From: Oscillospiraceae bacterium
GTDB lineage: Bacteria; Bacillota; Clostridia; Oscillospirales; Ruminococcaceae
DNA length: 33,853 bases
Reading direction: 5' to 3'
NCBI GenBank assembly: GCA_017436125.1
Contig: JAFSDS010000041.1
Coordinates: forward strand, 1-33,853
Both the position numbers and the translations under genes were made by a program. The number at the start of each line of letters is the position of its first letter. Within the stretch, counting starts at the first letter, position 1. Below the pieces are notes generated by a model. That model did no database searches. It was not told the DNA's origin and saw only the letters and a program-made list of their open reading frames with translations. Of this stretch, positions 809 to 19,229 are shown in pieces.

Positions 809-1277
809 GCCTTCCCAGAGGGGAAGGTGCCGAGTGAAACGAGGCGGAAGAGGGATTTTACCCAATTCTCTGTTTCACATTTAAGTCAATATAAGCGCAG
901 GAATTTTCAAAATTGCGGTCTATATCTTTGTTGAGAAAACGAAGAACTTTTATTCCGCAGCTTTCAAGATATTCCGTGCGTTTTTTGTCATATTCAATGG
1001 AGTCCGGGATATAATGCTGAGAACCGTCGATTTCAACAGCAAGTTTTGCATTTCTGCAGTAAAAATCAACAATATAATTTCCGATAACTACCTGCCTGCG
1101 GAATGATATTTCGTAAGAATTGAGAAAATCATACCAAAGATGCCGCTCCTGCGGAGTCATATTTTTTCGCAGTTGGTGTGATATGCTGCGCAGATTTGGG
1201 TTTGGCTGATAGTTTTTCGGCATTGCTGTCCCTCTTTCGTCACGCCTTCGGCGTGCCACCTTCCCCTCTGGGAAGGC
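809..1277 (-). mobile_element. DUF559 cassette A with hairpin ends (469 bp)
   Basis: A 469-bp unit bounded by inverted copies of a GCC-hairpin: CCTTCCC-AGAG-GGGAAGG at 810-827 and its counterpart at 1259-1276. Each end is itself a perfect 7-bp stem with a 4-nt loop. Inside the gene-proximal end is a second perfect hairpin (CACGCC-ttc-GGCGTG, 1241-1255), and then a GAGGGACAGC segment that serves as the nuclease ribosome binding site. The far end has the matching TCCCTC just after the stop codon. The unit sits exactly between dnaG and rpoD, and its first base completes the dnaG TAG stop. I see no clear target-site duplication. A second unit of the same design is at 18763-19229. Calling it mobile is an inference from two diverged copies with shared ends in unrelated loci. 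Confidence 0.75.
858..1223 (-). CDS. DUF559-family VSR-like endonuclease (cassette A)
   Basis: A 121-residue protein of the DUF559 family, a small PD-(D/E)XK/VSR-like fold. Visible family signatures: LRKNMTPQERHLWYDFL near the N terminus, IGNYIVDFYCR mid-protein with the presumed catalytic Asp, then VEIDGSQHY with acidic and His positions typical of this fold, and a closing GIKVLRFLNKDI. I place the start at ATG 1223 (MPKN) because it aligns with the GTG start of the second copy and follows GAGGGACAGC; the frame is open up to 1259, but that would translate the terminal hairpin. By hand alignment it is about two-thirds identical (80 of 121) to the copy at 18819-19184. Substrate is unknown; the cassette ends are an obvious candidate, by inference only. 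Confidence 0.88.
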   Translation of the reverse strand: MPKNYQPNPNLRSISHQLRKNMTPQERHLWYDFLNSYEISFRRQVVIGNYIVDFYCRNAKLAVEIDGSQHYIPDSIEYDKKRTEYLESCGIKVLRFLNKDIDRNFENSCAYIDLNVKQRIG

Positions 1278-3031
1278 TATTTTTTTGCCTTGCGCATTCT
1301 TTCGATATATGCCGCAAGTTCATCGCCGGAAAGTTCGCCGATTTCCTTATCGGTTTTCTTTTCTTTAAGGCGGAGAATATTCTTTGCCGCCTCGGCGGCA
1401 TCCTCTGCGGAATACCTGTGCTCACGGGCAAGGTTGGTCAGCTTTGCGATGATGCCCTGCTGCTCAAGAGTAAAATCTTCGCCGAAAAGCGTAAGAGAAA
1501 CCTCTGTTCCCGTGCTCAAAGTGCTCAAAAGCTTTTCATAGAACCTTCCGTAAAGCTCACAGACAAAATCATTCGGCGAAACAACGGTGCTTACGGTGCT
1601 CAAAGCCTCGGGGCTGCGCATCAATGCGCCCAAAAGCCTTTCTTCCGCCGCTGCGGAAGCGGGATTCCGGAGTTTTTCCGGAACAGCGCCGCCAAAGGTC
1701 GTTGTCTGGGCACTCTGGCCGGAAATAGCCCTTGCGCCTTCGGCTCTTGCCCGGCGTTTTATTTTTGTCTGCACCTGGGAAAGTATGCCTTCCTTTGTGG
1801 TGCCGTAATCCCTTGCAAGCTTTGCGGCCCAGACTTCTCTTTCAAGAGGATTTTTCATCCCGGCAAGAAGGTTTACCGCGTCTTTAAGAGCGGAAATTTT
1901 GCCCTCCGGCGTTGCAACGTCATACTTCGCGCTGATTTTTGAAAGTTCATATTCAGTGGAACCGGCGCTTTGCTCGATAAGCTTTTTAAAACGCGTTCCG
2001 CCGAATTTTTTGATATATTCATCAGGGTCCTTTGCGTCCGGAATTGAAAGCACCTTTGAACGTATTCCCACTTCGTCGAGAAGCGAGATAGCCCTTTTTG
2101 TCGCTTTCTGGCCAGCCTCGTCCGAATCGTATGCAAGCACCGCCTCTTCAACATAGGAAGAAGCAAGGCGGCATTGGTCGGAGGTAAGCGATGTTCCCAG
2201 GGAAGCTACCGCTTCTGTGAAACCGGCCTGATGCATGGCGATAACGTCCATATATCCTTCGCAAAGGATAAGCCGTTCAAGCTTTTGTTTTTTTGCAAAG
2301 TTAAGGGCAAAAAGGTTTTTTGTCTTTTTAAAAACCGGAGTATCCGGAGAGTTGTAATACTTCGGTCCGTCGCCGCTCATTTTTCTTCCGCCAAAGCCGA
2401 TGACGTTGCCTCGAAGGTCGATGATGGGGAACATGACCCTGTCACGAAAAACGTCATAATAGCGGCCGCTTTTATTGCTTTTTCGCGAAAGCTGGGCGGC
2501 TTCCATATCCTCATAGCGATAGCCTTTTGATGCCAGAAGATCCGTAAGGCTCGTCCATTCGTTTGGTGCATATCCAAGACCGAAATGTTTTATGGTCTTT
2601 GGTTCAAGGCCCCTTCCAAGAAGGTAATCCAGGGCGGCTTTTCCGCTTGGCTTCGTAAGCTCGGAAAAATAGAATCGGGCGGCTTCCCGGTTCATTTCAA
2701 GTATTTTTGTTTTTAAAAGAGCCGTTTTATCCTCCGCCGCATCCTCCGGAACATTCATTCCGGCTCTTTGGGCAAGGAATTTTATGGCTTCAACATATTC
2801 AAGGTTTTCAATGCGGCGGATAAATCCGATAACGTCGCCGCCGGCACCGCATCCGAAGCAGTAAAAAGACTGGCTTTCGGGATAGACGGTAAAAGAACCG
2901 GTTTTTTCTGAATGGAACGGGCAAAGCCCGGTGGATATCCTTCCGCGCTTGCGAAGCTGAACATAGCTTGAAACAACCGATTCGATATCGCAGTTCATTT
3001 TAAGTTCTTCAATAAAGCTTTGCGGGATCAA
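1277..3031 (-). CDS. dnaG: DNA primase
   Basis: Makes RNA primers for lagging-strand and initiation synthesis, working with the replicative helicase at the fork. 584 residues, close to the usual ~600. The N-terminal CHC2 zinc finger is clear (CPFH at about residue 38, then CFGC). The core follows (GFGGRKM), then the TOPRIM domain (LILCEGYMDVIAMHQAGF with the metal-binding Glu, and AYDSDEAG). The helicase-interaction C-terminal domain ends in KAKK. The start is TTG at 3031, supported by AGGAGG eight bases upstream; no ATG fits as well. It follows dgt by 48 bp and precedes rpoD. The TAG stop overlaps the outermost base of cassette A, so the insertion may have reset the last codons. Confidence 0.97.
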   Translation of the reverse strand: MIPQSFIEELKMNCDIESVVSSYVQLRKRGRISTGLCPFHSEKTGSFTVYPESQSFYCFGCGAGGDVIGFIRRIENLEYVEAIKFLAQRAGMNVPEDAAEDKTALLKTKILEMNREAARFYFSELTKPSGKAALDYLLGRGLEPKTIKHFGLGYAPNEWTSLTDLLASKGYRYEDMEAAQLSRKSNKSGRYYDVFRDRVMFPIIDLRGNVIGFGGRKMSGDGPKYYNSPDTPVFKKTKNLFALNFAKKQKLERLILCEGYMDVIAMHQAGFTEAVASLGTSLTSDQCRLASSYVEEAVLAYDSDEAGQKATKRAISLLDEVGIRSKVLSIPDAKDPDEYIKKFGGTRFKKLIEQSAGSTEYELSKISAKYDVATPEGKISALKDAVNLLAGMKNPLEREVWAAKLARDYGTTKEGILSQVQTKIKRRARAEGARAISGQSAQTTTFGGAVPEKLRNPASAAAEERLLGALMRSPEALSTVSTVVSPNDFVCELYGRFYEKLLSTLSTGTEVSLTLFGEDFTLEQQGIIAKLTNLAREHRYSAEDAAEAAKNILRLKEKKTDKEIGELSGDELAAYIERMRKAKK

Positions 3032-3079
3032 AGGCTCTGCCTCCTTTCTGTGATTTAGGCCCTCATGGGGGAAATCATA

Positions 3080-4078
3080 TCATTCTCTGTTCCAGCCTTT
3101 TGGAACAAAATAATCGTTATAGAGCTTTATCGCATAGCGGTCGCTCATACCGCTGATATAGTCACAAACAGCTCTGTCAAGGCCGTCGCGCATGGCAATA
3201 GCCTGATACTCCGCCGGAAGAGCATTGGCATTTTCAAGGAAAAATTCATAAAGCGCCTTAACAAGGGCTTCGGCTTTATGCTCCTGGGATTTTGCAACAG
3301 GGTTTGTATATACTGCGGCAAACATGAATTCTTCAAGAAGCTTGCTCGCAGCGGCAACTTCCGGTGCCATGCAGATATCTTCCTTTGAATTTTCGATTAC
3401 GGAAGTTATCATTTTTGCAAGGCGGGGGGTCGCGCCGATTCCAAGGATCTCTTTAACTTCTGCCGGAACGGATTCTTCCGTAAGAACTCCGGCTCTGACG
3501 GCATCCTCATAATCGTGGTGTGCATAGGCAAAATGGTCCGCAAGTTTTACTATGCGTCCTTCGGGAGTATCCGCTTCTTTTCCCTTGGTATGGCAAACTA
3601 TGCCGTCCCTCACTTCATAAGTGAGATTAAGGCCGTTTCCGTCCCGTTCAAGGATATCAACAACGCGAAGGCTCTGTTCATAGTGGCGGAATCCGCCGGG
3701 AGCGACTTCATTAAGAGCCCTTTCGCCTGCATGACCAAAGGGCGTGTGGCCAAGGTCATGGCCAAGGGCAATGGCTTCGGTAAGGTTTTCGTTAAGTCTT
3801 AACGCAACCGCCATGGTTCTTGCTATTTGAGCAACCTCAAGGGTATGGGTAAGGCGGGTGCGGTAATGGTCCCCCTCCGGGCTGAGGAAAACCTGAGTTT
3901 TATGCATAAGGCGGCGGAAGGCTTTGCAATGGATTATTCTGTCCCTGTCGCGCTGAAAATCCGTTCTGATGCCGTCGGATTCCAAAGGGCGAAGTCTTCC
4001 CTTTGTTTCTGCGGAAAGGGTTGCCATGGAAGAAAGGTTTTCTTTTTCAAGCTGTTCGGTCATTTCGCGGACTGTCAT
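3080..4078 (-). CDS. dgt: dGTP triphosphohydrolase-like HD-domain protein
   Basis: A dNTP triphosphohydrolase-family protein that splits dNTPs into nucleoside and triphosphate and so limits the dNTP pool. 332 residues. The HD metal site is visible: H in RLTHTLEVAQIAR, then HD in ALGHDLGHTPFGHAGE, and the later Asp in KLADHFAYAHHDYEDA. The N-terminal RTDFQRDRDRIIHCKAFRRLMHKTQV is characteristic of the Dgt family. ATG at 4078 follows AGGAGG. It heads the dgt-dnaG-rpoD series on the minus strand, an arrangement common in Clostridia. Whether dGTP is truly the preferred substrate cannot be told from sequence. Confidence 0.93.
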   Translation of the reverse strand: MTVREMTEQLEKENLSSMATLSAETKGRLRPLESDGIRTDFQRDRDRIIHCKAFRRLMHKTQVFLSPEGDHYRTRLTHTLEVAQIARTMAVALRLNENLTEAIALGHDLGHTPFGHAGERALNEVAPGGFRHYEQSLRVVDILERDGNGLNLTYEVRDGIVCHTKGKEADTPEGRIVKLADHFAYAHHDYEDAVRAGVLTEESVPAEVKEILGIGATPRLAKMITSVIENSKEDICMAPEVAAASKLLEEFMFAAVYTNPVAKSQEHKAEALVKALYEFFLENANALPAEYQAIAMRDGLDRAVCDYISGMSDRYAIKLYNDYFVPKGWNRE

Positions 4079-4112
4079 TTTCTGCCGCCTCCTTTTTCAA
4101 AAAATTGTTCTC

Positions 4113-4141
4113 TATATACTATATATGCCGAAATTTGCGAA
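4113..4141 (-). promoter_or_regulatory. Possible promoter for dgt-dnaG-rpoD
   Basis: On the minus strand TTCGCA (4141-4136) and TATATA (4118-4113) are 17 bp apart, about 35 bp before the dgt start. Both match the consensus in only 4 of 6 positions, and the AT-rich stretch offers other choices. Confidence 0.3.
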
Positions 4142-4193
4142 AAACCTCTTTTTTTATAAATAAAAAGTGAATTATTCGCAAAAAAGTGCCATA

Positions 4194-5999
4194 TCAGTCA
4201 TCATCCAGCTTGAGCACCGCCATAAAGGCTTCCTTCGGAAGCTCAACTGAGCCTATGCGGCGCATTTTCTTTTTACCTTCCTTCTGTTTTTCAAGAAGCT
4301 TTTTCTTACGGGTGATATCGCCGCCGTAGCATTTTGCAAGAACGTCCTTGCGCAGCGCCTTGATGGTTTCACGGGCGATGATCTTTCCGCCGATGGCTGC
4401 CTGGACCGGAACTTCGAAAAGCTGGCGGCTGATGTTGTCGCGAAGACGCTCGACCATTCTTCTTGCTCTGGGGTATGCGTTATCCGCAAAGACCATCATG
4501 GAAAGAGCATCGACCATATCGCCGTTGAGAAGGATATCAAGTTTTACAAGCTTGCTGGGCTTATAGCCGCAGGGTTCATAGTCAAAGGATGCGTAACCGC
4601 GGGTGCGGCTTTTAAGTGCGTCAAAAAAGTCATAAATGATTTCGCCGAGGGGAAGTTCATAATGGACTTCGCAGCGGTCCGCTTCAAGATAGTGGGTATC
4701 TTTATAAACTCCGCGGCGTTCCTGACAAAGCTCCATAATGCTTCCGATATACTGGGTGGGAGTGAAAATGGAAGCTCTTACATAAGGTTCCTCGGTGGAA
4801 TCAATGGTTGCGGGATCAGGATAGTTTGTGGGGTTATCAAGTTCAATAGTGCGTCCGTCGTTAAGGTGGAGCTTATAAACAACGCTGGGCGCGGTGGTGA
4901 TAAGGTCAAGGTTATATTCCCTTTCAAGGCGCTCAAGAATAACTTCCATATGAAGAAGTCCGAGGAATCCGCAGCGGAAGCCAAAGCCAAGGGCGGCAGA
5001 AGTTTCCGGCTCAAAGCTGAGGGATGCGTCGTTGAGGGTAAGTTTTTCAAGGGCGTCACGAAGGTCGCCGTATTTTGCGCCGTCAAGGGGATAAATACCG
5101 GCATAGACCATGGGGTTTACCTTTTTATAACCCGGAAGAGCTTCTTCCGCAGGGTTTTCCGCAAGGGTTACGGTATCGCCCACGGCGGTATCCGCAACGG
5201 TTTTGATGGAAGCGGTGATATAGCCGACTTCGCCGGCCTTGAGCACGTCGCTGGGAACAAGCCTTGTTGCGCCCATATAGCCGACTTCAACAACATCAAA
5301 TTCCGCGCCGGTGGACATCATTCTGATGCGGTCGCCGGAATGGAGTTCGCCGTCAACAACGCGGACATAAACTATAACGCCGCGGTAGCTGTCATAAATA
5401 GAGTCGAAGATAAGGGCTTTAAGGGGCGCATTATCGTTGCCCTTCGGTGCGGGAATACCTTCAACGATCGCCTCAAGAACGGCGTGGATATTTTCGCCGG
5501 TTTTGGCGGAGATCCTTGGGGAATCAAGAGCGGGGATGCCGATGATGTCCTCGATCTCATGGGCAACTCTTTCCGGATCCGCCGCAGGAAGGTCGATTTT
5601 ATTTATTACGGGAACTATCTCAAGGTTGTGGTCAACCGCAAGATAGGTGTTTGCAAGGGTCTGTGCCTCAACGCCCTGTGATGCGTCAACGATGAGAACG
5701 GCGCCTTCGCATGCGGCAAGGGAGCGGGATACTTCATAGTTGAAGTCAACATGTCCGGGGGTGTCGATAAGGTTAAAAACATAGCTGTTTCCGTCATCAG
5801 CGGTATAATCAAGGCGAACTGCGCGGGATTTTATGGTGATTCCGCGTTCACGCTCGATATCCATGTTATCGAGAAGCTGTTCTTCCATTTCGCGGGGAGT
5901 TACCGCCTGTGTATTTTCAAGAATTCTGTCGGCAAGGGTGGATTTGCCGTGGTCGATATGAGCGATTATACAGAAGTTTCTTATGTTGTCATTCGGCAT
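4194..5999 (-). CDS. lepA: Translation elongation factor 4
   Basis: Ribosomal GTPase EF4, which back-translocates or remodels stalled ribosomes. 601 residues, the normal length. G motifs are intact: G1 [10 protein letters not shown]2 RGITIK, G3 DTPGHVDF, G4 NKIDLP, G5 ISAKTG. The LepA-specific C-terminal domain is present ([51 protein letters not shown]). ATG at 5999 follows AGGAGGTG. It is transcribed alone or into dgt; I see no strong terminator in the 115 bp between lepA and dgt. Confidence 0.98.
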
Positions 6000-6024
6000 T
6001 GTTAAAAAAGCACCTCCTGTGCAA

Positions 6025-6033
6025 ATTATACCA
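6025..6033 (-). promoter_or_regulatory. Extended -10 promoter for lepA
   Basis: Minus-strand TGGTATAAT (extended -10, TGn plus perfect TATAAT at 6030-6025). The -35 region is poor. Transcription would start near 6018, right at the ribosome binding site, giving a very short leader of about 18 nt. Confidence 0.6.
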
Positions 6034-6130
6034 GTTTATATTTTACCACCCTTTATTATAGATTACAAATATTTTTTATATATATTAAAGAAAAATTTAA
6101 AAATTTTTGCAAAAAAAGGCAATAAAAAAA

Positions 6131-6148
6131 GCCGCCCTTTCGGGCGGC
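6131..6148 (-). terminator. Intrinsic terminator after the zinc-ribbon gene
   Basis: Perfect 7-bp stem GCCGCCC/GGGCGGC with a 4-nt loop, followed on the minus strand by seven T residues. It lies just past the stop of the gene at 6168-6602. Confidence 0.9.
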
Positions 6149-6167
6149 CTTCTTATTGGCTTATGTA

Positions 6168-6602
6168 TCAGTCGTATCTGACAACAATGTGTTTTCCTAT
6201 GAGGGGAAGATCGATCGCCTGGCCTTTTACCGCATGGATGATGCCCATAACGGTGAATACGATGCAGGCAACTGCACCGACTACGGATGCGATCCAGCCA
6301 ATGAAAGGAATGATTGCAACAAGGCCGCAGAGAATACCGAAAACATAAAGAACAACGGCCTGATTGATGTGGTAACGGATGAATTTGGAGTTTGGCTCAA
6401 GAAGAAGCGCAAGGATCACGAAGAGAACGCTGAAATAGCAAAAACCTGCAAGATAGCGGCTTCTTTCAATGTCTTCCGGCTCAAACATGGCGGTGTGGTC
6501 GGTTTCAGCGGGTGCTTTTGCAGCGGTTCCAACGGGTTCGCCGCAGGTGGGGCAGTAATGGTCATTTTCCGGAATCTGGGTTCCGCATTTGGGACAGAAC
6601 AT
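6168..6602 (-). CDS. Zinc-ribbon plus DUF4870-like small membrane protein
   Basis: 144 residues. The N terminus is a zinc ribbon (CPKCG at residues 3-7 and CPTCG around 17-21) followed by a short linker. The C-terminal part has three hydrophobic segments: around ARYLAGFCYFSVLFVILALL, then VVLYVFGILCGLVAIIPFIGWI, and VVGAVACIVFTVMGIIHAV. The phrase FIRYHINQAVVLYVFG resembles DUF4870-type proteins, in which a charged loop precedes paired helices. ATG at 6602 follows AGGAGG. It is a single gene with its own terminator. Its biochemical role is unknown; a membrane-anchored zinc ribbon could be a protein-interaction module. Confidence 0.85.
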   Translation of the reverse strand: MFCPKCGTQIPENDHYCPTCGEPVGTAAKAPAETDHTAMFEPEDIERSRYLAGFCYFSVLFVILALLLEPNSKFIRYHINQAVVLYVFGILCGLVAIIPFIGWIASVVGAVACIVFTVMGIIHAVKGQAIDLPLIGKHIVVRYD

Positions 6603-6695
6603 AGTAAAATCCTCCTTTTATCCTTTTAAAAAAATTTTATCATGGCAAAAATTTTTGTTCAATATAAAAAAGCGAAAGTTAAGAAAAATTTAAGA

Positions 6696-6727
6696 AACGG
6701 GCAGAAAATAAAAGCTTTCCGCCCGTT
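6696..6727 (-). terminator. Terminator after the aldolase-like gene
   Basis: Stem AACGGGC/GCCCGTT with further pairing inside the 18-nt loop (GGAAAGC region). The minus-strand tail is T-rich (TTTCTTAAATTTTTC). It lies 17 bp past the aldolase-like stop. Confidence 0.7.
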
Positions 6728-6743
6728 TTTTTACAAGATTTTT

Positions 6744-7838: not shown

Positions 7839-7871
7839 ATGAAAAACCTCCAAAAATCAGTTTATAAATGC

Positions 7872-7880
7872 AGTATATCA
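7872..7880 (-). promoter_or_regulatory. Extended -10 promoter for the aldolase-like gene
   Basis: Minus-strand TGATATACT: TATACT at 7877-7872 with the TGn extension. The -35 candidate TTTAAA is weak at 17 bp. The implied leader is about 27 nt. Confidence 0.5.
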
Positions 7881-7975
7881 CAAGATGTGTTCGATTTAAA
7901 GACAGTTTTGCAAAAAAATTAGGTTCTTTGGGCAATTTAGCACAAAATAGCTTTGTTATTTCGTCACCTTCGGCA

Positions 7976-8005
7976 TTGAAAAATGCTCTTAAAAGGTGAT
8001 ACAAT
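7976..8005 (+). promoter_or_regulatory. Promoter of the glycogen operon
   Basis: TTGAAA (7976-7981), an 18-bp spacer, then TACAAT (8000-8005) preceded by TG for an extended -10. The predicted start near 8012 leaves a leader of about 105 nt before glgB. Confidence 0.7.
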
Positions 8006-8028
8006 GATATATGTATAAGTAGATAATA

Positions 8029-8086: not shown

Positions 8087-8116
8087 TGAAGGGTGAACCC
8101 CCGAAAGGAGAAATCT

Positions 8117-12331: not shown

Positions 12332-12337
12332 AAAATA

Positions 12338-12437
12338 GGCCCCCTTGTCAAAGGGGGCTGTCAGCGAAGCTGACTGGGGGATTAATAATAATCAACCTGT
12401 ATGTTTCGCGGTATCAATCCCTTTAAAAGGGGAAGCC
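12338..12437 (+). repeat. Non-coding hairpin element C between glgD and glgA
   Basis: A 100-bp unit bounded by GGC and GCC. Left end: an 8-bp stem GCCCCCTT/AAGGGGGC (12339-12358), then hairpin GTCAGC-gaa-GCTGAC (12360-12374), then GGGGGATT. Right end: AATCCC with a small CCCTT/AAGGG hairpin. The design (GC-rich hairpin, GAA-loop hairpin, G-run plus ATT, inverted AATCCC end) copies the DUF559 cassettes without sharing the exact sequence or carrying a gene. It starts seven bases after the glgD stop codon. No U-tract follows, so a terminator role is unlikely. Confidence 0.65.
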
Positions 12438-12460
12438 TTTGAATTGAGGAGGGAAATTTA

Positions 12461-13888
12461 ATGAACGTTCTTTTTGCGGCAAGCGAAGCAAGACCTTTTA
12501 TTGCTTCCGGCGGCCTTGCGGACGTAATCGGCGCACTGCCGAAGGCTCTGCTCGGAGCGGGATGCGACTGCAGAGTTATTCTTCCGCTTTATTCCGATAT
12601 CCCGGATAAATTCCGCGAAGAGCTCCACCGCATTGCCGAAGTCAATGTAAGGCTTGGCTGGCGCGATCTTTACTGCGGACTTTATGAAACCGTTTATAAC
12701 GGCGTTACTTTCTATTTTATTGATAATGAATATTATTTCAAACGTTCCGGAATTTACGGACATTTTGATGACGGCGAGCGTTTTGCATATTTTTCCAAAG
12801 CTGTTCTCGAATGCGTAAAAGTTATGGATTTTGAACCGGAGATAATCCATTGCCACGACTGGCAGACCGGCATGATCCCGACTTTCCTTCGCCTTTTCTA
12901 TCACGACGAACCTAAGCTTGCAAACGTAAAAACCATATTCACCATCCATAATATCCAGTATCAGGGCAACTATGATATGTATTTTGCCGGAGATGTTCTC
13001 GGAATTTCCGAAAGCAGAAAAGGCATGGTCGAATACGACGGCCGCTGCAACTATATGAAAGCCGGCATCGACCAGTGCGATGCTATTTCCACCGTAAGCC
13101 CCACCTATGCCGAGGAGATCCAGGATCCCTGGTTCGCATGGGGACTTGACCGCCTTCTCCGGGAAAGAAGATATAAGCTTGCAGGTATTCTCAACGGTAT
13201 CGATACCGAGAGCTATGACCCTTCCACCGACCCCGAAATCCCTGCAACTTTCTCCAAATATGATCTTTCCGGAAAAGCAAAATGCAAGGCGGAACTTCAG
13301 AAGGAGCTGGGCCTTAACGTGGATCCTTCCGCAATGCTCATCGGCATGGTTGGAAGACTTGTTTCCCATAAGGGCCTTGACCTTGTTCGCGCCGTTTGCG
13401 ACAGAGTTATGGAAGGAAACGTCCAGATAGCTATTCTTGGCAGCGGAGAATCCGCTTTTGAGGGCTTCTTCCGCTATATGCAGGATAAATATCCGGGCCG
13501 CATCAGCTTTGTATGCGGATTTATCCCGGCCCTTGCAAGAAGGATTTATGCCGGTTCCGATGTTTTCCTTATGCCCAGCAAGAGCGAACCCTGCGGCCTT
13601 GCCCAGATGATCGCGCTTCGCTACGGAACAGTTCCGATAGTCCGCGAAACCGGCGGTCTTAAGGATTCCATCAAGGACCTTGGCGGCATTAAAGGCAACG
13701 GTTTTACTTTCCAGACTTATAATGCGGACGATATGCTCGACGCTATCCACCGCGCCCAGATGCTTTATTACAAAAGCGAAAAATGGAAAGAGGCTGTTCT
13801 CAATGCTCTTTCCTGTGATTTCAGCTGGAACAAAAGCGCCCACGCATATACCCGCCTTTATGAATCCGTAACGGGTAAAAAAGGATAA
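12461..13888 (+). CDS. glgA: Glycogen synthase (ADP-glucose)
   Basis: Family GT5 glucosyltransferase that extends alpha-1,4 glucan from ADP-glucose. 475 residues, normal length. N-terminal Rossmann domain: MNVLFAASEARPFIASGGLADVIGALPKAL; C-terminal domain: GMVGRLVSHKGLDLV and SEPCGLAQMIALRYGTVPIV with the conserved Glu. HCHDWQTG and NGIDTESYDP are also family hallmarks. The usual KxGG of the donor site reads ASGG here, so the Lys seen in the E. coli enzyme is Ala; I believe similar variants occur in other Clostridia. ATG at 12461 follows GGAGGG. Last gene of the glg operon, with a strong terminator. Confidence 0.96.
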   Translation: MNVLFAASEARPFIASGGLADVIGALPKALLGAGCDCRVILPLYSDIPDKFREELHRIAEVNVRLGWRDLYCGLYETVYNGVTFYFIDNEYYFKRSGIYGHFDDGERFAYFSKAVLECVKVMDFEPEIIHCHDWQTGMIPTFLRLFYHDEPKLANVKTIFTIHNIQYQGNYDMYFAGDVLGISESRKGMVEYDGRCNYMKAGIDQCDAISTVSPTYAEEIQDPWFAWGLDRLLRERRYKLAGILNGIDTESYDPSTDPEIPATFSKYDLSGKAKCKAELQKELGLNVDPSAMLIGMVGRLVSHKGLDLVRAVCDRVMEGNVQIAILGSGESAFEGFFRYMQDKYPGRISFVCGFIPALARRIYAGSDVFLMPSKSEPCGLAQMIALRYGTVPIVRETGGLKDSIKDLGGIKGNGFTFQTYNADDMLDAIHRAQMLYYKSEKWKEAVLNALSCDFSWNKSAHAYTRLYESVTGKKG

Positions 13889-13900
13889 TAAAAATAAATA

Positions 13901-13924
13901 AGCGGCGGGAAATTTCCCGCCGCT
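13901..13924. terminator. Bidirectional terminator between glgA and the M23 gene
   Basis: Perfect 24-nt palindrome of two 12-nt arms (AGCGGCGGGAAA and its complement), T-rich on both sides: TTTTTATTTT on plus and TTATTTATTTTTATT on minus. It serves both convergent genes. Confidence 0.92.
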
Positions 13925-13926
13925 TT

Positions 13927-14640
13927 TTATTTTATCTTTGTTTTCGGATCGATAAATTTTCCGTTTTCCTTCATGGCAAAATGGAGGTGGGAGTTTTTGT
14001 CGATTTCCGCAAGATTGGTGTCCCCAAGGGTCCCGATAACGTCGCCGGATTTAACTTCGTCCCCGGCTTTTACGGAAGGTTCTTCCGCAAGGCCGCTGTA
14101 AATACTGGTGATGCCCTTATCATGGGTGATTTCGATAACTGTACCCCAAAGAGGGTCGTTTGTTACGGATTTTACTTTTCCGTCCGCGGCGGCTTTGATC
14201 TCTGTTCCCGCTTCGGCGGCAATATCAATGCCGTCATGGGTGCGCCATTCGTTCAGGGCTTCGTATTTTACAAGTTCGCCGGCGCTGTGATTTCCGATGA
14301 TCTCACCATCAAGAGGCATGACGTATGCGGTACCTTTATTGACAAAATTAAAAGTGCTTTCCTCTTTTTTCTCCTCGGGTTTTTCCTCGATTTCAACGTT
14401 TTCCTTGGGTTTTCCAACCTCTTCAGAAGCAAAAATGGAATCGTTCGGGTTATAGTTTTCTTCGATTACAACGCGGTTTTCCGTTTTGGGAACGTCATCT
14501 TTTTCTTTGACGGAATCTATAACGCTGTCTGCGGTTGCCCATGCAGCGGCAACGGCACCGAGAATACAAACCGCCATTGCGGCATAAAATCCGCGGCCGG
14601 AAAGAAAGCCCGAAAGGCCGCCTTTTCTATTGTTTTTCAT
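13927..14640 (-). CDS. Membrane-anchored M23/LytM-domain protein, SpoIIQ-like
   Basis: 237 residues: a short basic N terminus, one membrane segment (about residues 15-37, FYAAMAVCILGAVAAAWATA), an acidic Glu/Lys-rich linker (about 45-98) and a LytM/M23 domain (about 105-237). The zinc ligand motifs are present: HDGID (H135, D139) and HLH (about 218-220). The usual YxHL active-site His reads IYSGL, so the catalytic His is Gly. This mix of kept and lost residues, the single N-terminal anchor and the size resemble SpoIIQ, the forespore protein that pairs with SpoIIIAH in the engulfment channel. No other sporulation gene is in the window, so the role is an inference; a divisome or cell-wall LytM factor is the alternative. 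ATG at 14640 follows AAGGTGG. Confidence 0.8.
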   Translation of the reverse strand: MKNNRKGGLSGFLSGRGFYAAMAVCILGAVAAAWATADSVIDSVKEKDDVPKTENRVVIEENYNPNDSIFASEEVGKPKENVEIEEKPEEKKEESTFNFVNKGTAYVMPLDGEIIGNHSAGELVKYEALNEWRTHDGIDIAAEAGTEIKAAADGKVKSVTNDPLWGTVIEITHDKGITSIYSGLAEEPSVKAGDEVKSGDVIGTLGDTNLAEIDKNSHLHFAMKENGKFIDPKTKIK

Positions 14641-14643
14641 TCG

Positions 14644-14682
14644 ATATGACCACCTTTTTATAAAATAATCCTTTGGTCATAT
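14644..14682 (-). promoter_or_regulatory. Inverted repeat around the M23 gene promoter region
   Basis: Perfect 8-bp arms ATATGACC (14644-14651) and GGTCATAT (14675-14682) are 23 bp apart. The gene-proximal arm ends three bases before the ATG and abuts the ribosome binding site; the loop holds an AT-rich -10-like stretch (TTATTTTATAA). It could be a pair of operator half-sites or an RNA hairpin that hides the ribosome binding site. Confidence 0.45.
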
Positions 14683-14766
14683 TTTTGCCGAAGAGGAATT
14701 TTTTATGCGGAAGAAAAAATGAAAAATATGGTGAAAAATAAAAAATCCGCCGAAGAGGTTTTTGTA

Positions 14767-14795
14767 TTGCCTAAAAAACATAAAAATGATATTCT
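14767..14795 (+). promoter_or_regulatory. Possible promoter for tgt
   Basis: TTGCCT (14767-14772), 17-bp spacer, TATTCT (14790-14795) with TGA just before it (extended -10). Each hexamer matches 4 of 6 positions. Confidence 0.4.
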
Positions 14796-14826
14796 TTTAT
14801 AAGAAATATTTTTCCCGGAGGAAAAG

Positions 14827-15960
14827 ATGTATAAAATTATAAAAACCTGCGGCAAGGCACGCAGAGCAAGGCTTGAAACTCCCCACGGCGTTATTGAAAC
14901 GCCGGTTTTTATGAACGTTGGAACAGCGGCGGCCATCCGCGGCGGCGCTTCCACCGATGATTTGAGGGAGATAGGTACCCTTGTTGAACTTTCAAACACA
15001 TATCATCTCCATATGCAGCCCGGCGAGGAACTTATTGCAAGGCTTGGGGGACTTCATAAATTTATGAACTGGGATAAACCGATACTTACGGATTCCGGCG
15101 GTTTTCAGGTTTTTTCGCTCCATAATCTTCGCCGTATAAAAGAGGAGGGCGCATATTTTACCTCCTATATCGACGGAAGAAAAATTTTTATGGGCCCGGA
15201 AGAATCAATGCAGATACAGTCAAAACTGGGAAGCGATATTGCCATGGCCTTTGATGAATGCATCGAAAACCCTGCGCCAAGGGATTATGTTGAAAAATCC
15301 GTTGCAAGAACGACCCGCTGGCTTCACCGCTGTATTGCGGAACACGAAAAGCTTGCAAAAGTTTCGGACAACGTAAATCCCGGCCAGCTGCTTTTCGGAA
15401 TAAACCAGGGCGGAACCTATGACGATATCCGCATTGAGCATATGAAAGAAATAGCAAAGATAGAGGGCCTTGACGGCTATGCCATCGGAGGACTTTCCGT
15501 CGGCGAAAGTGCAGAGGAGATGTACCGCATCATAGACGCCGTTGAACCCTATATGCCGAAGGATAAGCCAAGATATCTTATGGGCGTCGGAACTCCCCTC
15601 AATATCCTTGAGGGAGTTCACAGAGGGGTTGATTTTTTCGACTGTGTTCTTCCTCTTCGCAACGCCCAGCACGGAAACGTTTTTACCTGGAACGGAAAAG
15701 TCCGCATCCTTGCGGAAAAATTCAAATATGACGGAACACCTATTGACGAAAACTGTCACTGCCCCGCCTGCAGAAGCTACAGCAAGGGATATATCCGCCA
15801 CCTTCTTAAAGCGGATGAGCGCCTTGGAATGCGTCTTTGTGTTCTTCATAATCTCTGGTTCTATAACGAAATGATGGCGGAAATAAGAAAACAGATCGAA
15901 AACGGAACCTTTGAAGAATTTTATCAAAAATACAGAGATATACTTGATAAACAGGTATAA
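14827..15960 (+). CDS. tgt: tRNA-guanine transglycosylase
   Basis: Exchanges guanine-34 for the queuosine precursor in GUN-anticodon tRNAs. 377 residues, the standard bacterial length. Visible: LTDSGGFQVFS with the proton-acceptor Asp, GINQGGTYDDIR, GGLSVGE, the nucleophile Asp in HRGVDFFDCVLPLRNAQHG, and the zinc site CHCPAC plus the later His in LCVLHNLWFYNEM. ATG at 14827 follows GGAGG. No queA or queuosine-biosynthesis gene is adjacent. Confidence 0.97.
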   Translation: MYKIIKTCGKARRARLETPHGVIETPVFMNVGTAAAIRGGASTDDLREIGTLVELSNTYHLHMQPGEELIARLGGLHKFMNWDKPILTDSGGFQVFSLHNLRRIKEEGAYFTSYIDGRKIFMGPEESMQIQSKLGSDIAMAFDECIENPAPRDYVEKSVARTTRWLHRCIAEHEKLAKVSDNVNPGQLLFGINQGGTYDDIRIEHMKEIAKIEGLDGYAIGGLSVGESAEEMYRIIDAVEPYMPKDKPRYLMGVGTPLNILEGVHRGVDFFDCVLPLRNAQHGNVFTWNGKVRILAEKFKYDGTPIDENCHCPACRSYSKGYIRHLLKADERLGMRLCVLHNLWFYNEMMAEIRKQIENGTFEEFYQKYRDILDKQV

Positions 15961-15968
15961 AGAAAAAA

Positions 15969-15987
15969 GCCTCCCGAAAAGGGAGGC
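15969..15987. terminator. Bidirectional terminator between tgt and the DUF378 gene
   Basis: Stem GCCTCCC/GGGAGGC with a 5-nt loop, flanked by AAAAAA on the left and TTTTTT on the right, so it works for both convergent genes. Confidence 0.93.
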
Positions 15988-15994
15988 TTTTTTA

Positions 15995-16219
15995 TCAGGT
16001 TGCACGTTCTTCCCTCGGACGGAAAAGCAGTGTGATCCCCCAAACAGCCCCAAGACCCACAAGGGTATAGACAATGCGGCTGAAAATATCTTCGGATCCT
16101 CCGAAAAGCCATGCAACAGCATCAAAATCAAGAAGGCCAACAAGCCCCCAGTTGATACCGCCGATAACGATAAGCGCAAGGGCGATTCTGTCCGCCCAGG
16201 TAATGGCGCTCATATCCAT
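15995..16219 (-). CDS. DUF378-family small membrane protein
   Basis: 74 residues with two membrane helices: IALALIVIGGINWGLVGLL and RIVYTLVGLGAVWGITLLF. The phrase GGINWGLVGL with a following FD and an invariant Gly in the second helix is typical of DUF378 (YuzA-like) proteins, whose function is unknown. I start at ATG 16219 because AAGGAG lies nine bases upstream; the ATG at 16228 directly abuts that site and is too close. Single gene. Confidence 0.87.
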   Translation of the reverse strand: MDMSAITWADRIALALIVIGGINWGLVGLLDFDAVAWLFGGSEDIFSRIVYTLVGLGAVWGITLLFRPREERAT

Positions 16220-16287
16220 AAAAAACATCTCCTTTATTGTTTTGAACCTATTTTTCCCGCTTTTTGAAAAAATATGCCGAAAAGGAT

Positions 16288-16317
16288 TTTACATTTTATG
16301 TGTTTGTATGGTATGAT
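16288..16317 (+). promoter_or_regulatory. Promoter of the D,D-carboxypeptidase gene
   Basis: TTTACA (16288-16293), 18-bp spacer, TATGAT (16312-16317). Both hexamers match 5 of 6 positions. The leader would be about 45 nt. Confidence 0.55.
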
Positions 16318-16369
16318 TATATAAATAACGCTTTTGCAAAAAAATAAAATCCCCGGCAAGGAGTTTTAA

Positions 16370-17692
16370 ATGTTAAAAAAAATTATTTCTGTTGTTCTTT
16401 GCATCATAACGGTGCTTTCAATATCTGTTCCCGCCTTTGCGGCGGTTCCCTCATCCGAAATCATTTCCGAAACCTGGTGCGTAATGGACGCAAAAACCGG
16501 CCAGATACTCATCGGCGGAAACGAAAATGCAAAAAGAGAACCCGCTTCCATCACAAAAATACTTACCTGTGCCATGGCATTGGAGCGCCTTGACCCAAAG
16601 GCTTCCTATACTTTTTCAAAAGAAGCCGCAAGCTATGACTATGCAAGCACCCATCTTGCTTTTACCGAGGGAGAAACCTGCACCATTGAGGATCTTCTTT
16701 ACGGCGCAATGGTGGAATCCGCAAACGACTGCGCCATGGGCCTTGCGGATGCCGCCGCAGGCAGCCAGCTTGCGTTTGTTCGCCTTATGAACGAAAAACT
16801 TGCGGAACTTGGATGCACCGGCTCCCATTTTTCAAATGTCACCGGCATGCCGGAAATGAACCATTACTCCACTGCAAGGGATATGGCCGTTATTACAAAA
16901 TACGCCCTTTCCGTTCCCGGATTCATGACCTATTTTTCCGCCTGGGAATGGACTATTCCCGAAACAAATAAAAACGCCGCAAGAACTTTTGGAACCCACC
17001 ACGCCATGATAGTCGGCAGCGAATATAACAAAACTTTCGGCTATGACTATGCCACCGGCGGAAAACTCGGCTGGACGGAAGAAGCCCTGCATACCGCCGT
17101 TACCACCGCTGATAACGGCGAAATGGAACTTATCTGCGTTGTTATGAAAAGCAAGCACAAAAACGCAAAGTATAAGGATTCCACACTTCTTCTCGATTAC
17201 TGCTTCGATAATTTCAAAACCGTCGAGATTCCCGTTTCCGTAAAGAAATCGGAGCTTTCCGTCTATGAGGGCGAAGAACTTTACGGAAAAATGACCGTTT
17301 ATCCCATGGCATCCGTAAACATCCTTCTTACGGATGACCTTTCTGCCTCGGATGTTTCCGTAAAAACAAATATTCCGGAAAGCTGCCTTCTTTCCGAAGT
17401 AAGCAGTGTTGCTCTTGAAATAAGCATTGACAAAACAAGCGCAAATATGTCCACCGGAAAATTTTCCGTTTCTCCTGAGTATCATATCGTAAAGGAATCC
17501 TCAGTTGTTTCCTCCGATGCGGAACTTGGAAATGAGGGAAGTACCTTTAAATGGTGGGTATTCATCCTAATTCCCCTCGGCGTTTTCGGAACTCTTGTTG
17601 TAATCGTTCTCATAATCCGCGCATATAATATAAGAAAATATAAAAAGCTTCGCCGCCACCAGCATTACAGAAGACTTGGCCACGATAAATAA
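16370..17692 (+). CDS. D-alanyl-D-alanine carboxypeptidase (S11 family)
   Basis: Low-molecular-weight penicillin-binding protein that trims the terminal D-Ala of peptidoglycan stem peptides outside the membrane. 440 residues: signal peptide (about 1-24, ending PAFA), catalytic domain with SITK (Ser60-Lys63) and SAN in VESANDCAM. The third motif, normally KTG, reads KLG in GGKLGWT. A beta-rich C-terminal domain follows, then a membrane segment (WWVFILIPLGVFGTLVVIVL) and a basic cytoplasmic tail. The C-terminal helix is a true transmembrane anchor rather than the amphipathic helix of DacA. ATG follows AAGGAG. DacF/DacB-type naming cannot be settled. Confidence 0.92.
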   Translation: MLKKIISVVLCIITVLSISVPAFAAVPSSEIISETWCVMDAKTGQILIGGNENAKREPASITKILTCAMALERLDPKASYTFSKEAASYDYASTHLAFTEGETCTIEDLLYGAMVESANDCAMGLADAAAGSQLAFVRLMNEKLAELGCTGSHFSNVTGMPEMNHYSTARDMAVITKYALSVPGFMTYFSAWEWTIPETNKNAARTFGTHHAMIVGSEYNKTFGYDYATGGKLGWTEEALHTAVTTADNGEMELICVVMKSKHKNAKYKDSTLLLDYCFDNFKTVEIPVSVKKSELSVYEGEELYGKMTVYPMASVNILLTDDLSASDVSVKTNIPESCLLSEVSSVALEISIDKTSANMSTGKFSVSPEYHIVKESSVVSSDAELGNEGSTFKWWVFILIPLGVFGTLVVIVLIIRAYNIRKYKKLRRHQHYRRLGHDK

Positions 17693-17711
17693 TTGCAAAC
17701 GTAAAAAAAAC

Positions 17712-17740
17712 TTGCATTCCGCTTTTTATTATGATATATT
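17712..17740 (+). promoter_or_regulatory. Promoter of the cysE-cysS operon
   Basis: TTGCAT (17712-17717), 17-bp spacer, TATATT (17735-17740) with TGA before it (extended -10). The transcript would start near 17747, just before T-box stem I. Confidence 0.7.
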
Positions 17741-17756
17741 AAATTCAATATTATAA

Positions 17757-18037
17757 ATGCGATGACCGGGAGAAGTAACCGTATCACTTGAGCACCAGAG
17801 AGGTGAACAGAAAGCTGAAAGTTCACTTGTTTGAGCACGGAGAAATGCACCCGATGAGCACAAAACGGGAAAGCTTGTTTCTTGAGCACGGCGAGTATCG
17901 TTTTGCGGAGCGCCACCGTTAAAAGGCAGCGGGTTTTTATGACTCGGCAAAGGGATAAACCGGAGTGGAACCGCGATAATTTCTGTATTTTTACCGCCTC
18001 CGTCACAAGAAAATTGTGGCGGAGGCTTTTTTATTTT
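17757..18037 (+). promoter_or_regulatory. T-box riboswitch, cysteine-specific
   Basis: Senses uncharged tRNA-Cys and prevents termination when cysteine is scarce. The stem I start shows the AGTA motif (AGAAGTAACC). The specifier TGC (17846-17848) lies in AGAAATGCACC, as expected for the specifier loop. The T-box sequence TGGAACCGCG is at 17966-17975; its TGGA pairs with an acceptor end UCCA, which fits the U73 discriminator of tRNA-Cys, whereas most T-boxes carry TGGT. The terminator is a GCCTCCGTCAC/GTGGCGGAGGC stem at 17996-18026 with a T-tract to 18037. Downstream genes are cysE and cysS, which agrees with the specifier. Confidence 0.93.
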
Positions 18038-18056
18038 TTGCTTATTCTTCCCGCAG

Positions 18057-18096
18057 GGGCGGCTGTCAGCCGCCCGCGGGCGCATAGTATGCGCCC
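18057..18096 (+). repeat. Two tandem perfect hairpins between T-box and cysE
   Basis: GGGCGGCT-gtc-AGCCGCCC (18057-18075) and GGGCGCAT-agt-ATGCGCCC (18078-18096): two 8-bp perfect stems with 3-nt loops, two bases apart, GC-rich against an AT-rich leader. No U-tract follows. It resembles the repetitive GC-rich palindromes scattered through clostridial genomes rather than part of the T-box. Confidence 0.7.
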
Positions 18097-18122
18097 ATAC
18101 AGCAAGGAAAGGAGATAATTTT

Positions 18123-18809
18123 ATGTTTTCCGGCCTTAAAAAAGATATAGATGCCGTTCGTGAAAGGGACCCGGCGGCCCCTTCTGCATTAAAAGTTCTT
18201 ATTATGTATTCCGGTCTTCATGCCATTATGTGGCACAGACCCGCATACTGGCTTTGGAACCACGGCTTTAAGTTCATAGCCCGCGCCCTTTCACAGATAG
18301 TCCGCTTTTTTACCGGAGTTGAGATACACCCGGCGGCAAAGCTCGGAAGGGGAATCCTTATTGACCACGGCGCCGGCGTTGTTATAGGCGAAACCGCCGA
18401 AGTGGGCGATGGCTGCACAATTTATCAGGGAGTTACCCTCGGCGGTACCGGCAAGGAAACCGGAAAACGCCATCCGACCCTTGAAAAAAACGTGATAGTC
18501 GGCTGCGGTGCAAAGGTTCTTGGTCCGTTCACCGTTGGAGAAGGATCAAAAATTGCCGCAAACGCCGTTGTTCTCAACACAATTCCGGAATATTCCACCG
18601 CCGTGGGCGTTCCCGCAAGGGTTGTTCGCCAGCACGGAAAAAAGGTGATCCCTGCGGAAAAACTTGACCAGGTCCATATTCCTGACCCGGTTTCCCAGGA
18701 AATCTGCAAGCTCTATATGGAAATCGACCGCCTTAAAGCGGAACTTGCGGAGATGAAAAACAGCCTTCCCGGAGGGGAAGGTGGCATTTCCGAAGGAAAT
18801 GACGGATGA
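18123..18809 (+). CDS. cysE: Serine O-acetyltransferase
   Basis: Acetylates serine to O-acetylserine, the first committed step of cysteine synthesis. 228 residues. The N-terminal helical part holds RPAYWLWNHGFKFIARALSQ. The left-handed beta-helix has HPAAKLGRGILIDHGAGVVIGE with the catalytic His, then GVTLGGTG, KRHPTLEKNVIVG and GVPARVV. A C-terminal helix follows (EICKLYMEIDRLKAELAEMKN). The last 15 residues (214-228, SLPGGEGGISEGNDG) are encoded by the end of DUF559 cassette B, so they are not ancestral. ATG follows GGAAAGGAG. Under T-box control, co-directional with cysS. Confidence 0.96.
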   Translation: MFSGLKKDIDAVRERDPAAPSALKVLIMYSGLHAIMWHRPAYWLWNHGFKFIARALSQIVRFFTGVEIHPAAKLGRGILIDHGAGVVIGETAEVGDGCTIYQGVTLGGTGKETGKRHPTLEKNVIVGCGAKVLGPFTVGEGSKIAANAVVLNTIPEYSTAVGVPARVVRQHGKKVIPAEKLDQVHIPDPVSQEICKLYMEIDRLKAELAEMKNSLPGGEGGISEGNDG

Positions 18810-19229
18810 GGGACAGCCGTGCCTAAAAATTTTGAACCAAACTCAAAGTTAAGCGAAAAAGCCAAAGACTTACGCAAAAATATGACACCGGAAGAAAGAC
18901 ATCTTTGGTATGATTTTTTAAGATTATATCCGATACAATTCAACTGCCAGCGTATCATCGGCAACTATATCGTTGATTTTTATTGCAGAAAAGCAAATCT
19001 TGTAATAGAGATTGACGGAAAGCAGCACTATATTCCGGATGGTATCAGTTATGACAAAGAACGGACCGATTACTTGAACAGCATAGGAATTGAAGTGGTC
19101 CGCTTTTTAAATAAAGATATAAATGACAATTTTCAAAATGTCTGCGCACACATTGATATGACCGTAAAGCGACGAATGGGATAATCCCTCATCCGTCCGC
19201 TTCGCGGCCACCTTCCCCTCTGGGAAGGC
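18763..19229 (+). mobile_element. DUF559 cassette B with hairpin ends (467 bp)
   Basis: Same plan as the unit at 809-1277. Left end: hairpin CCTTCCC-ggag-GGGAAGG (18764-18781), then CATTTCC-gaa-GGAAATG (18785-18801), then GAGGGACAGC ahead of the nuclease start. Right end: TCCCTC after the stop codon, a CCGC-ttc-GCGG hairpin (19197-19207) and CCTTCCC-ctct-GGGAAGG (19211-19228). It lies between cysE and cysS, in their orientation, and overlaps the 3' end of the cysE reading frame. Outer hairpins and the GAGGGA blocks match cassette A, while the inner hairpins keep their shape but change sequence. I see no target-site duplication. Confidence 0.75.
18819..19184 (+). CDS. DUF559-family VSR-like endonuclease (cassette B)
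   Basis: 121 residues, the same length as the copy at 858-1223 and about two-thirds identical. Family signatures: LRKNMTPEERHLWYDFL, IIGNYIVDFYCRKANL, IEIDGKQHYIPD, and IEVVRFLNKDI. The start is GTG at 18819, which aligns exactly with the ATG of the other copy and follows GAGGGACAGC inside the cassette end. Its start codon lies 10 bp past the cysE stop, and it is read from the cysteine T-box transcript, so it should be expressed most during cysteine starvation. Catalytic residues look intact, so an active nuclease is plausible. Its target is unknown. Confidence 0.88.
   Translation: MPKNFEPNSKLSEKAKDLRKNMTPEERHLWYDFLRLYPIQFNCQRIIGNYIVDFYCRKANLVIEIDGKQHYIPDGISYDKERTDYLNSIGIEVVRFLNKDINDNFQNVCAHIDMTVKRRMG

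What the first reader, a model, noticed from the sequence alone, without database searches (positions are those of the whole stretch)
809..19229. Two hairpin-ended DUF559 nuclease cassettes: a candidate mobile or homing system
Units of 469 bp (809-1277) and 467 bp (18763-19229) each hold one 121-residue VSR-like nuclease between inverted GCC-hairpin ends. The nucleases are only about two-thirds identical, yet the outer hairpin CCTTCCC-N4-GGGAAGG and the GAGGGA blocks are nearly unchanged, while the inner hairpins keep their shape and vary in sequence. Conserved ends on diverged genes suggest the ends are functional DNA or RNA sites. There is no transposase, so either the nuclease itself drives homing by cutting empty or solo palindromes, or a transposase acts in trans, comparable to REP/RAYT systems.
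Basis: partly seen in the sequence, partly recalled or inferred. Interest (0 to 1): 0.85.

Follow-up and report, generated by a model that had tools for sequence, protein, structure and literature searches.

The report
Nuclease genes inside mobile palindromic repeats
Two small genes for a likely DNA-cutting enzyme in this bacterium sit between folded repeat ends that have spread to many chromosome sites, and similar ends flank related genes in distant bacteria, suggesting an overlooked kind of mobile repeat that carries its own nuclease.

Summary
In detail: 809-1277 and 18763-19229 each hold a 121-aa DUF559 (PF04480) nuclease between inverted hairpin ends. It is also general. In 15 genomes of the genus there are 0 to 12 DUF559 matches per genome, and 49 of 57 uncut loci have paired ends (controls 0 of 106). 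Orthologous sites are empty in some species and filled in others. Copies at different sites of one genome reach 97% DNA identity. So it moves, or did recently. The ends are more than hairpins: the 'GAGGGA' block mirrors the outer stem and co-varies with it. That is the layout of the intrastrand-triplex repeats (BoxC/PIT/TM), published without any mobility gene. Such motifs also flank DUF559 genes on replicons of alphaproteobacteria, Deinococcus and cyanobacteria. Over 197 genomes of the order, palindromes are enriched where DUF559 is present (median excess 11.5 versus 0; within-genus permutation p = 0.0016 on the mean, 0.057 on the count of genera). REP-type tyrosine transposases (RAYT) occupy several of the same sites in relatives; none was found in the window's genome. 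Best reading: REP-like mobile elements whose own enzyme is a Vsr-like nuclease. That it drives movement is inferred; no cutting of the ends is shown.

The parts
809..1277 (-). Cassette 1 (469 bp) between dnaG and rpoD, nuclease in the same direction as both
   Evidence: gap comparison
861..1223 (-). DUF559/PF04480 nuclease, 121 aa (stop 858-860)
1259..1276 (.). outer palindrome on the nuclease 5' side
1241..1255 (.). inner hairpin CACGCC-TTC-GGCGTG, next to CGTC
1229..1238 (-). purine block on the nuclease strand, imperfect mirror of the outer stem; also at SD distance from the nuclease start
   Evidence: by eye; mirror test on the whole set
810..827 (.). outer palindrome on the nuclease 3' side
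829..845 (.). weak inner hairpin (GCC...GGC), no CGTC tag here
846..855 (+). purine block GGAAGAGGGA, imperfect mirror of outer stem GGGAAGG
   Evidence: by eye
18763..19229 (+). Cassette 2 (467 bp) between cysE and cysS, same direction
   Evidence: gap comparison
18764..18781 (.). outer palindrome, nuclease 5' side
18785..18801 (.). inner hairpin CATTTCC-GAA-GGAAATG
18804..18813 (+). purine block GGATGAGGGA
18819..19184 (+). DUF559/PF04480 nuclease, 121 aa (GTG start)
19185..19194 (+). pyrimidine block TCCCTCATCC, running into CGTC
19197..19207 (.). inner hairpin CCGC-TTC-GCGG
19211..19228 (.). outer palindrome, nuclease 3' side
18123..18809 (+). cysE frame that runs into the cassette: its last codons come from the element, whereas the three relatives with an empty site reach a stop 21 nt after the same point (18755)

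Best explanation
The cassettes are autonomous-looking copies of a REP-like mobile element. Each end is a structured motif: a purine/pyrimidine hairpin, a spacer hairpin and a mirror block, the layout of the published intrastrand-triplex repeats. The gene inside, a Vsr-like DUF559 nuclease, is the element's own enzyme. Nuclease-less palindromes in the same genomes are its shortened or passive copies. Shown by comparison: the paired ends, site occupancy that differs between species, near-identical copies at different sites of one genome, mirror co-variation within the ends, ends that track the nuclease lineage, and more palindromes where DUF559 is present. Inferred: the nuclease recognises the folded ends (most likely in single-stranded or supercoiled DNA), cuts at or beside such a motif, and the break is repaired by copying a resident element, so the cassette spreads into palindromes and neighbouring sites without a target-site duplication.
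For: Paired ends: genus 49 of 57 uncut loci with inverted-repeat score >=14, offset controls 0 of 106, maximum 11; 48 of 80 named loci, 143 controls with mean 8.0 and maximum 15. 0-12 matches in 15 genomes of the genus. Empty versus filled: cysE-cysS, dnaG-rpoD and dgt-dnaG, pcrA-mscS. Copies at different sites of one genome: 96.2-97.0% over 438-469 nt in G012, 97.2% over 356 nt in G004. Triplex-type motif in flank windows: genus 66 of 112 vs 8 of 262; named loci 91 of 158 vs 8 of 424; plasmid-collection loci from several phyla 29 of 50 vs 2 of 46. Mirror co-variation: own block 0.791 vs swapped 0.710, maximum of 200 swaps 0.725, 237 ends. Nuclease identity tracks outer-hairpin identity, rho 0.48, permutation maximum 0.27, n = 37. 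197 genomes of the order: palindrome excess median 11.5 with DUF559 (48) and 0 without (149), p = 1.8e-11, within-genus permutation p = 0.0016; after subtracting two palindromes per DUF559 copy the median is still 8. Catalytic-type residues invariant in the 30 aligned proteins (E26, D53, E64, D66, H70). Solved sequences: 3hrl 'Endonuclease-Like Protein' 1.4e-20 and 3r3p 'Mobile intron protein' 0.007.
Against: No cleavage or transposition has been observed. Nuclease and ends are physically linked, so their co-variation could be plain co-inheritance. RAYT-like genes share several sites, so another enzyme may be involved. By count of genera the within-genus link is weak: DUF559+ higher in 12 of 17, lower in 5, p = 0.057. 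The palindrome pattern covers only some end families. Motifs on both sides pass the strict test at only 21 of 56, 33 of 79 and 10 of 25 loci, and 6 of the 25 plasmid-collection loci (Neisseria, two E. coli, Geobacillus, Picosynechococcus, Novosphingobium) have none. 32 of 80 named loci lack paired ends at the threshold, and at least one of the 143 controls reaches it. No target-site duplication was seen. The window's own blocks are imperfect mirrors. No structure model could be made.
Confidence: 0.55

Rival explanations
1. A REP-associated tyrosine transposase (RAYT) moves the elements in trans; DUF559 is cargo or a competitor using the same ends.
For: 23 RAYT-like genes in the genus lie in 5 site clusters, 4 of them shared with DUF559; the two proteins tested match NF047646 REP-associated tyrosine transposase at 5e-17 and 6e-22, below its cut-off (62 and 78 bits against 80). 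In G009 a RAYT gene lies against the right end of a DUF559 cassette. The inner hairpins resemble CGTC-tagged REPs (PMC3733652, abstract and passages).
Against: No PF01797 hit in the window's genome or in G004 (9 DUF559 matches), and only an IS200-type one in G012 (12 DUF559 matches, 98% complete). Palindrome number follows DUF559 (rho 0.58) rather than RAYT (rho 0.21) in 15 genomes. By eye the RAYT genes mostly lack a left hairpin. RAYT was not counted in the 197-genome set.
Confidence: 0.2
2. The palindromes spread by replication slippage, template switching or recombination at structured DNA; the nuclease is a passenger or a repair enzyme kept near them.
For: Holder 2015 (PMC4666352) links such motifs to rearrangement without a mobility gene; palindromes also occur in genomes with no strong DUF559 match (12 of 149 have an excess >=10). 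A Caulobacter DUF559 protein, VsrA, is predicted to be a mismatch-repair endonuclease (PMC12907096, passages).
Against: Would not explain whole cassettes at 96-97% identity at new sites, nor the association of this gene family with the motifs in several phyla.
Confidence: 0.15
3. Classical homing: each nuclease cuts one empty intergenic site and is copied there from a relative.
For: The same sites are used repeatedly in different species, and a chimaeric cassette at dnaG-rpoD in G004 shows exchange between resident types.
Against: Near-identical copies occupy several unrelated sites in one genome; different families occupy one site in different species.
Confidence: 0.07
4. Ordinary terminators or mRNA-stabilising hairpins round a resident gene.
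For: Hairpins often lie right after stop codons and next to A/T-rich sequence (by eye).
Against: Polymorphic occupancy, nuclease-specific association and mirror co-variation.
Confidence: 0.03

Closest known systems
REP/RAYT 'REPtrons' and REPINs
   Same: short palindromes, inverted doublets, many per genome, an enzyme gene beside or between them
   Different: the enzyme here is a PF04480 nuclease, not a Y1 HUH transposase; outer stems carry mirror blocks
Intrastrand triplex repeats BoxC / PIT / TM (Holder 2015)
   Same: purine hairpin plus mirror block, many genomes; in Sinorhizobium and Deinococcus loci the ends have the same layout with a 3-nt spacer
   Different: published as having no associated mobility gene; here a nuclease gene sits between two inverted motifs, and in Clostridia the spacer is a hairpin
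CGTC-tagged REPs (Di Nocera 2013)
   Same: CGTC next to a stem-loop, CCA-like tail, head-to-head pairs (CGTC at 3 of the window's 4 ends, by eye)
   Different: published as lacking a dedicated transposase; the words clostridi and firmicutes do not occur in that main text
EDxHD / Vsr-like homing endonucleases (I-Bth0305I)
   Same: related nuclease domain (3r3p, E 0.007); one paper assigns a cyanobacterial DUF559 gene to this family (PMC9403480, passages)
   Different: 121 aa, no further domain found by Pfam, no Rfam intron match in the window, many sites per genome

Membership tests
REP/RAYT REPtron | high-copy palindromes in inverted pairs | tested here: met
   30-249 palindromes in 13 of 15 genus genomes (4 and 1 in the other two), reversed-pattern controls 1-9; paired ends
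REP/RAYT REPtron | Y1 HUH (RAYT) gene in the element | tested here: not met
   no PF01797 match in G000; gene is PF04480
CGTC-tagged REP | unpaired CGTC beside a stem-loop with CCA tail | tested here: inconclusive
   CGTC at 3 of the window's 4 ends by eye; no formal count on the whole set
Intrastrand triplex repeat (BoxC/PIT/TM) | hairpin with purine strand and a nearby mirror copy of it | tested here: met
   for the family: flanks far above control; mirror co-variation; the window's own blocks match imperfectly
Intrastrand triplex repeat (BoxC/PIT/TM) | forms a triplex physically | not testable with these tools
   needs CD, NMR or footprinting
MITE of a DDE transposon | terminal inverted repeats with target-site duplication | tested here: not met
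   inverted arms yes; filled/empty comparison between species shows about 13 nt replaced and no duplication at two sites
EDxHD homing endonuclease | related catalytic domain | tested here: met
   3r3p at E 0.007 and weak homing-endonuclease profiles
EDxHD homing endonuclease | separate DNA-binding region | tested here: not met
   only PF04480 and sub-threshold PF18741 in a 121-aa protein
EDxHD homing endonuclease | cuts an allele that lacks the element | not testable with these tools
   needs a cleavage assay

The most novel reading that the evidence does not exclude
DUF559 (YcjD-like) nucleases are the missing mobility enzymes of the widespread triplex-type palindromic repeats (BoxC/PIT/TM, and perhaps CGTC REPs) across bacterial phyla: a class of mobile DNA that spreads by a nuclease recognising unusual DNA structure rather than by a transposase, with most copies reduced to bare palindromes.
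Probability: 0.4. Interest if true: 0.92.

Novelty: new variant of a known kind. Interest (0 to 1): 0.8.

Why it matters
Two published puzzles would gain a common answer: triplex-type repeats in more than 260 genomes with no mobility gene found (PMC4666352), and CGTC REPs that 'apparently lack a dedicated transposase' (PMC3733652). Pfam still calls DUF559 a family of unknown function; a role in moving structured repeats would give it a testable function and explain why such nucleases turn up between operon genes such as dnaG-rpoD or sufB-sufC.

Tried and rejected
Structure prediction of the nuclease (alignment A2) was asked for ten times and the queue was always full, so fold comparison is missing. 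Rfam found nothing in the window at gathering thresholds. A phylum-wide sample mostly returned other DUF559 subfamilies, many in frames of about 1,100-1,900 aa; of its 29 fetched loci two had flank scores >=11 (13.0 and 25.5) and one could not be scored. E. coli ycjD was tried as a filled/empty test: by eye, triplex-type motifs lie on its right side, but the two partial-match strains I viewed carry an efflux operon between sapF and fabI (also PMC12817139, passages), so it gives no clean empty site. Two phage records encode relatives; one has paired ends (score 28), one does not (9). Target-site duplications were looked for and not found.

Rows left out: 3 short fragment rows of the 64; the unrelated G011:C79 match is counted in the 57 but dropped from later tests; 18 of 29 phylum loci used as the weak-family control (4 strong hits and 7 long multi-domain frames left out; gene ends there set approximately); 25 of 35 plasmid records fetched, and the 2 phage loci not counted. 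Gene names (dnaG, rpoD, dgt, lepA, cysE, cysS, pcrA, mscS, ftsK, ftsY, glg genes) were recognised from sequence, not family-scanned, except where a fetched record was annotated. That 3r3p is I-Bth0305I is recalled. Literature searches: in an open-access library only. Of the 14 papers that hold 'DUF559' I saw passages of three (PMC12907096, PMC8836110, PMC9403480) and only the listing of the other eleven; nothing seen links DUF559 to these repeats, but subscription papers are not covered. PMC3116915 and PMC3943268: passages; PMC8266576: outline only.
Full report
OBSERVATION. Both cassettes are as described. Four exact CCTTCCC-N4-GGGAAGG sites bound them, the arms of cassette 1 are perfect over 21 nt, and the two 121-residue proteins are 66% identical and both PF04480. 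The ends fold well as single-stranded DNA, one of them less clearly. In the rest of the genome (1.75 Mb, 83 contigs, 86.8% complete) there is one more DUF559 gene, also with such ends, and two copies of the exact palindrome with no DUF559 gene found beside them.

THE GENUS. Fifteen genomes of the genus hold 0 to 12 PF04480 matches each; 14 of 15 have at least one. I examined the flanks of 61 of the 64 matches. Of 57 loci not cut by a contig end (one of them an unrelated weak match), 49 have left and right flanks that are inverted repeats of each other (score >=14); windows moved 350 or 600 nt outward give 0 of 106 (maximum 11). Several end families exist, for example CCTTCCC, CCTCCCTT and CTCTCCC types. 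In the flanks I read, the nuclease commonly lies just after a stop codon and in the direction of its neighbours; I made no formal count of this.

MOVEMENT. At cysE-cysS, four genomes hold a DUF559 cassette, three a RAYT-like gene, three a nuclease-less element, and three are empty with a 39-nt gap (G013 unresolved, and G005 has no cysE hit). In the window's genome the cysE frame runs into the cassette. At dnaG-rpoD seven genomes hold a cassette of one or another family and others hold short elements, remnants or none. At pcrA-mscS, G012 and G014 are filled while G004 and G006 are empty: GGAATAATA[TCTTTACTCCAAA]AAGGAGG against GGAATAATA[AAAATAGCC...element...GGCTTTTG]AAGGAGG. About 13 native nucleotides are replaced and there is no duplication; these are comparisons between species, so later change cannot be excluded. 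Within G012, copies at three sites are 96.2-97.0% identical. In G004 the dnaG-rpoD cassette is a chimaera: left end and nuclease start of one family, remainder of another, frame intact.

RAYT AT THE SAME SITES. A PF01797 search gave 31 matches in 12 of 15 genomes of the genus: by inspection 5 IS200-type, 3 fragments and 23 RAYT-like genes. Clustering of flanks gives 19 DUF559 site clusters, 5 RAYT clusters and 4 shared; one cluster merges lepA-dgt and dgt-dnaG, both shared. If about 1,000 co-directional gaps are available (my assumption), such overlap by chance is negligible. The two proteins tested match the NCBIfam REP-associated tyrosine transposase model below its cut-off. No RAYT was found in G000, G004 and G013, nor in G012 apart from an IS200-type gene; G000 and G004 are only 87-88% complete. 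Palindrome numbers follow DUF559 copies (rho 0.58, p 0.023) rather than RAYT copies (rho 0.21, p 0.45) (n = 15, not corrected for relatedness).

WHAT THE ENDS ARE. From the outside each end has a purine/pyrimidine hairpin, a spacer with an inner hairpin, and a purine block. The block is a mirror, not a complement, of the outer stem, as in AGGGAGG/GGAGGGA or GGGAGAG/GAGAGGG. Over 237 ends with 32 distinct stem cores, the own-block mirror match is 0.791; swapped between loci it is 0.710 (maximum of 200 swaps 0.725) and with shuffled stems 0.699. This is the design of the intrastrand-triplex motifs of Holder 2015 (PMC4666352; abstract, sections 15 and 18, section 20 part 1 of 2 and passages read), found in more than 260 genomes and tied to rearrangement, where 'activities that provide genetic mobility' were never found. 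The inner hairpin with its CGTC recalls the CGTC REPs of Di Nocera 2013 (PMC3733652; abstract and passages read), described as lacking a dedicated transposase.

BEYOND THE GENUS. Of 80 named loci, mainly Oscillospiraceae and other Clostridia MAGs, 48 have paired ends; controls average 8.0 but reach 15 once or more. tblastn against plasmid records gave 35 records; I fetched 25. Triplex-type motifs occur in 29 of 50 flank windows against 2 of 46 controls, with motifs on both sides at 10 loci in Sphingomonas, Sinorhizobium, Qipengyuania, Deinococcus and Pseudanabaena. Annotated records show DUF559 between a GatB/YqeY-domain gene and dnaG, between sufB and sufC, and among transhydrogenase genes in Sphingomonas. 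In 18 other DUF559 loci of weaker subfamilies the motif is in 1 of 36 windows (approximate coordinates). Not all fit: Neisseria, two E. coli, Geobacillus, Picosynechococcus and Novosphingobium loci fail the strict test, although by eye Neisseria and E. coli have imperfect motifs nearby.

GENOME-WIDE LINK. In 197 genomes of the order, 48 have a strong PF04480 match (E <= 1e-15). Palindrome counts minus the reversed-pattern control are 11.5 (median) with DUF559 and 0 without (p 1.8e-11); the control pattern itself does not differ clearly (p 0.07). An excess >=10 is seen in 25 of 48 against 12 of 149. Within 17 genera that have both states the difference is positive in 12 and negative in 5; permutation p is 0.0016 for the mean and 0.057 for the count of genera. 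Subtracting two palindromes per DUF559 copy leaves a median of 8, so the palindromes are not just the ends of the cassettes. The pattern covers only some end families, and RAYT was not counted in this set.

MECHANISM. Committed view: the nuclease is the element's enzyme and acts on structured ends, with recombinational copying after a cut. The comparative steps are shown; recognition, cutting and copying are inferred. The protein family fits a nuclease (30 of 30 aligned sequences keep E26, D53, E64, D66 and H70; best solved sequences 3hrl and 3r3p). Its link with the ends in several phyla is the strongest argument that it is more than cargo. The sites shared with RAYT are the strongest argument that another enzyme may take part. 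In Caulobacter a DNA damage response in cells lacking a cytosine methylase is reported to depend on a DUF559 protein, VsrA (PMC12907096, passages), which suggests that members can damage chromosomes.

VERDICT. A real, mobile, cross-phylum association that I did not find in the literature I could search, which is open-access text only. I file it as a new variant of REP-like mobile DNA, not as a RAYT REPtron, because that family's enzyme is missing.

Noticed in passing
L136 (G009:C12:26470-28315), L124, L128: Several RAYT genes overlap the upstream stop codon (ATGA overlap) and some keep a half hairpin of a former palindrome on their 3' side, as if RAYT genes had replaced the left part of resident palindromes.
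   Followed up: partly
window 25112-25179: A 30-nt, 80% complementary inverted repeat, unlike the cassette ends; possibly another repeat family.
   Followed up: no
L062 (G012:C17) and L067 (G009:C81): A different repeat (...CGCCGCAGAATATTTTGGGCACCGCAAGAGTTGGG) seems to replace or interrupt an outer hairpin of two DUF559 elements.
   Followed up: no
L264, L229, L291, L292: E. coli ycjD overlaps a triplex-type motif at its stop codon; the two strains viewed with only a partial match carry an efflux operon between sapF and fabI (the 1,709-bp region is at least 80% present in 3,362 of 5,426 genomes).
   Followed up: partly
L058 (G004:C37:47975-48286): Natural in-frame chimaera of two nuclease families at dnaG-rpoD, with one end from each family.
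   Followed up: partly
G007 and G013: Palindromes of this pattern are nearly absent (4 and 1); G007 has one DUF559 cassette of another end type and two RAYT genes, and neither was found in G013.
   Followed up: no
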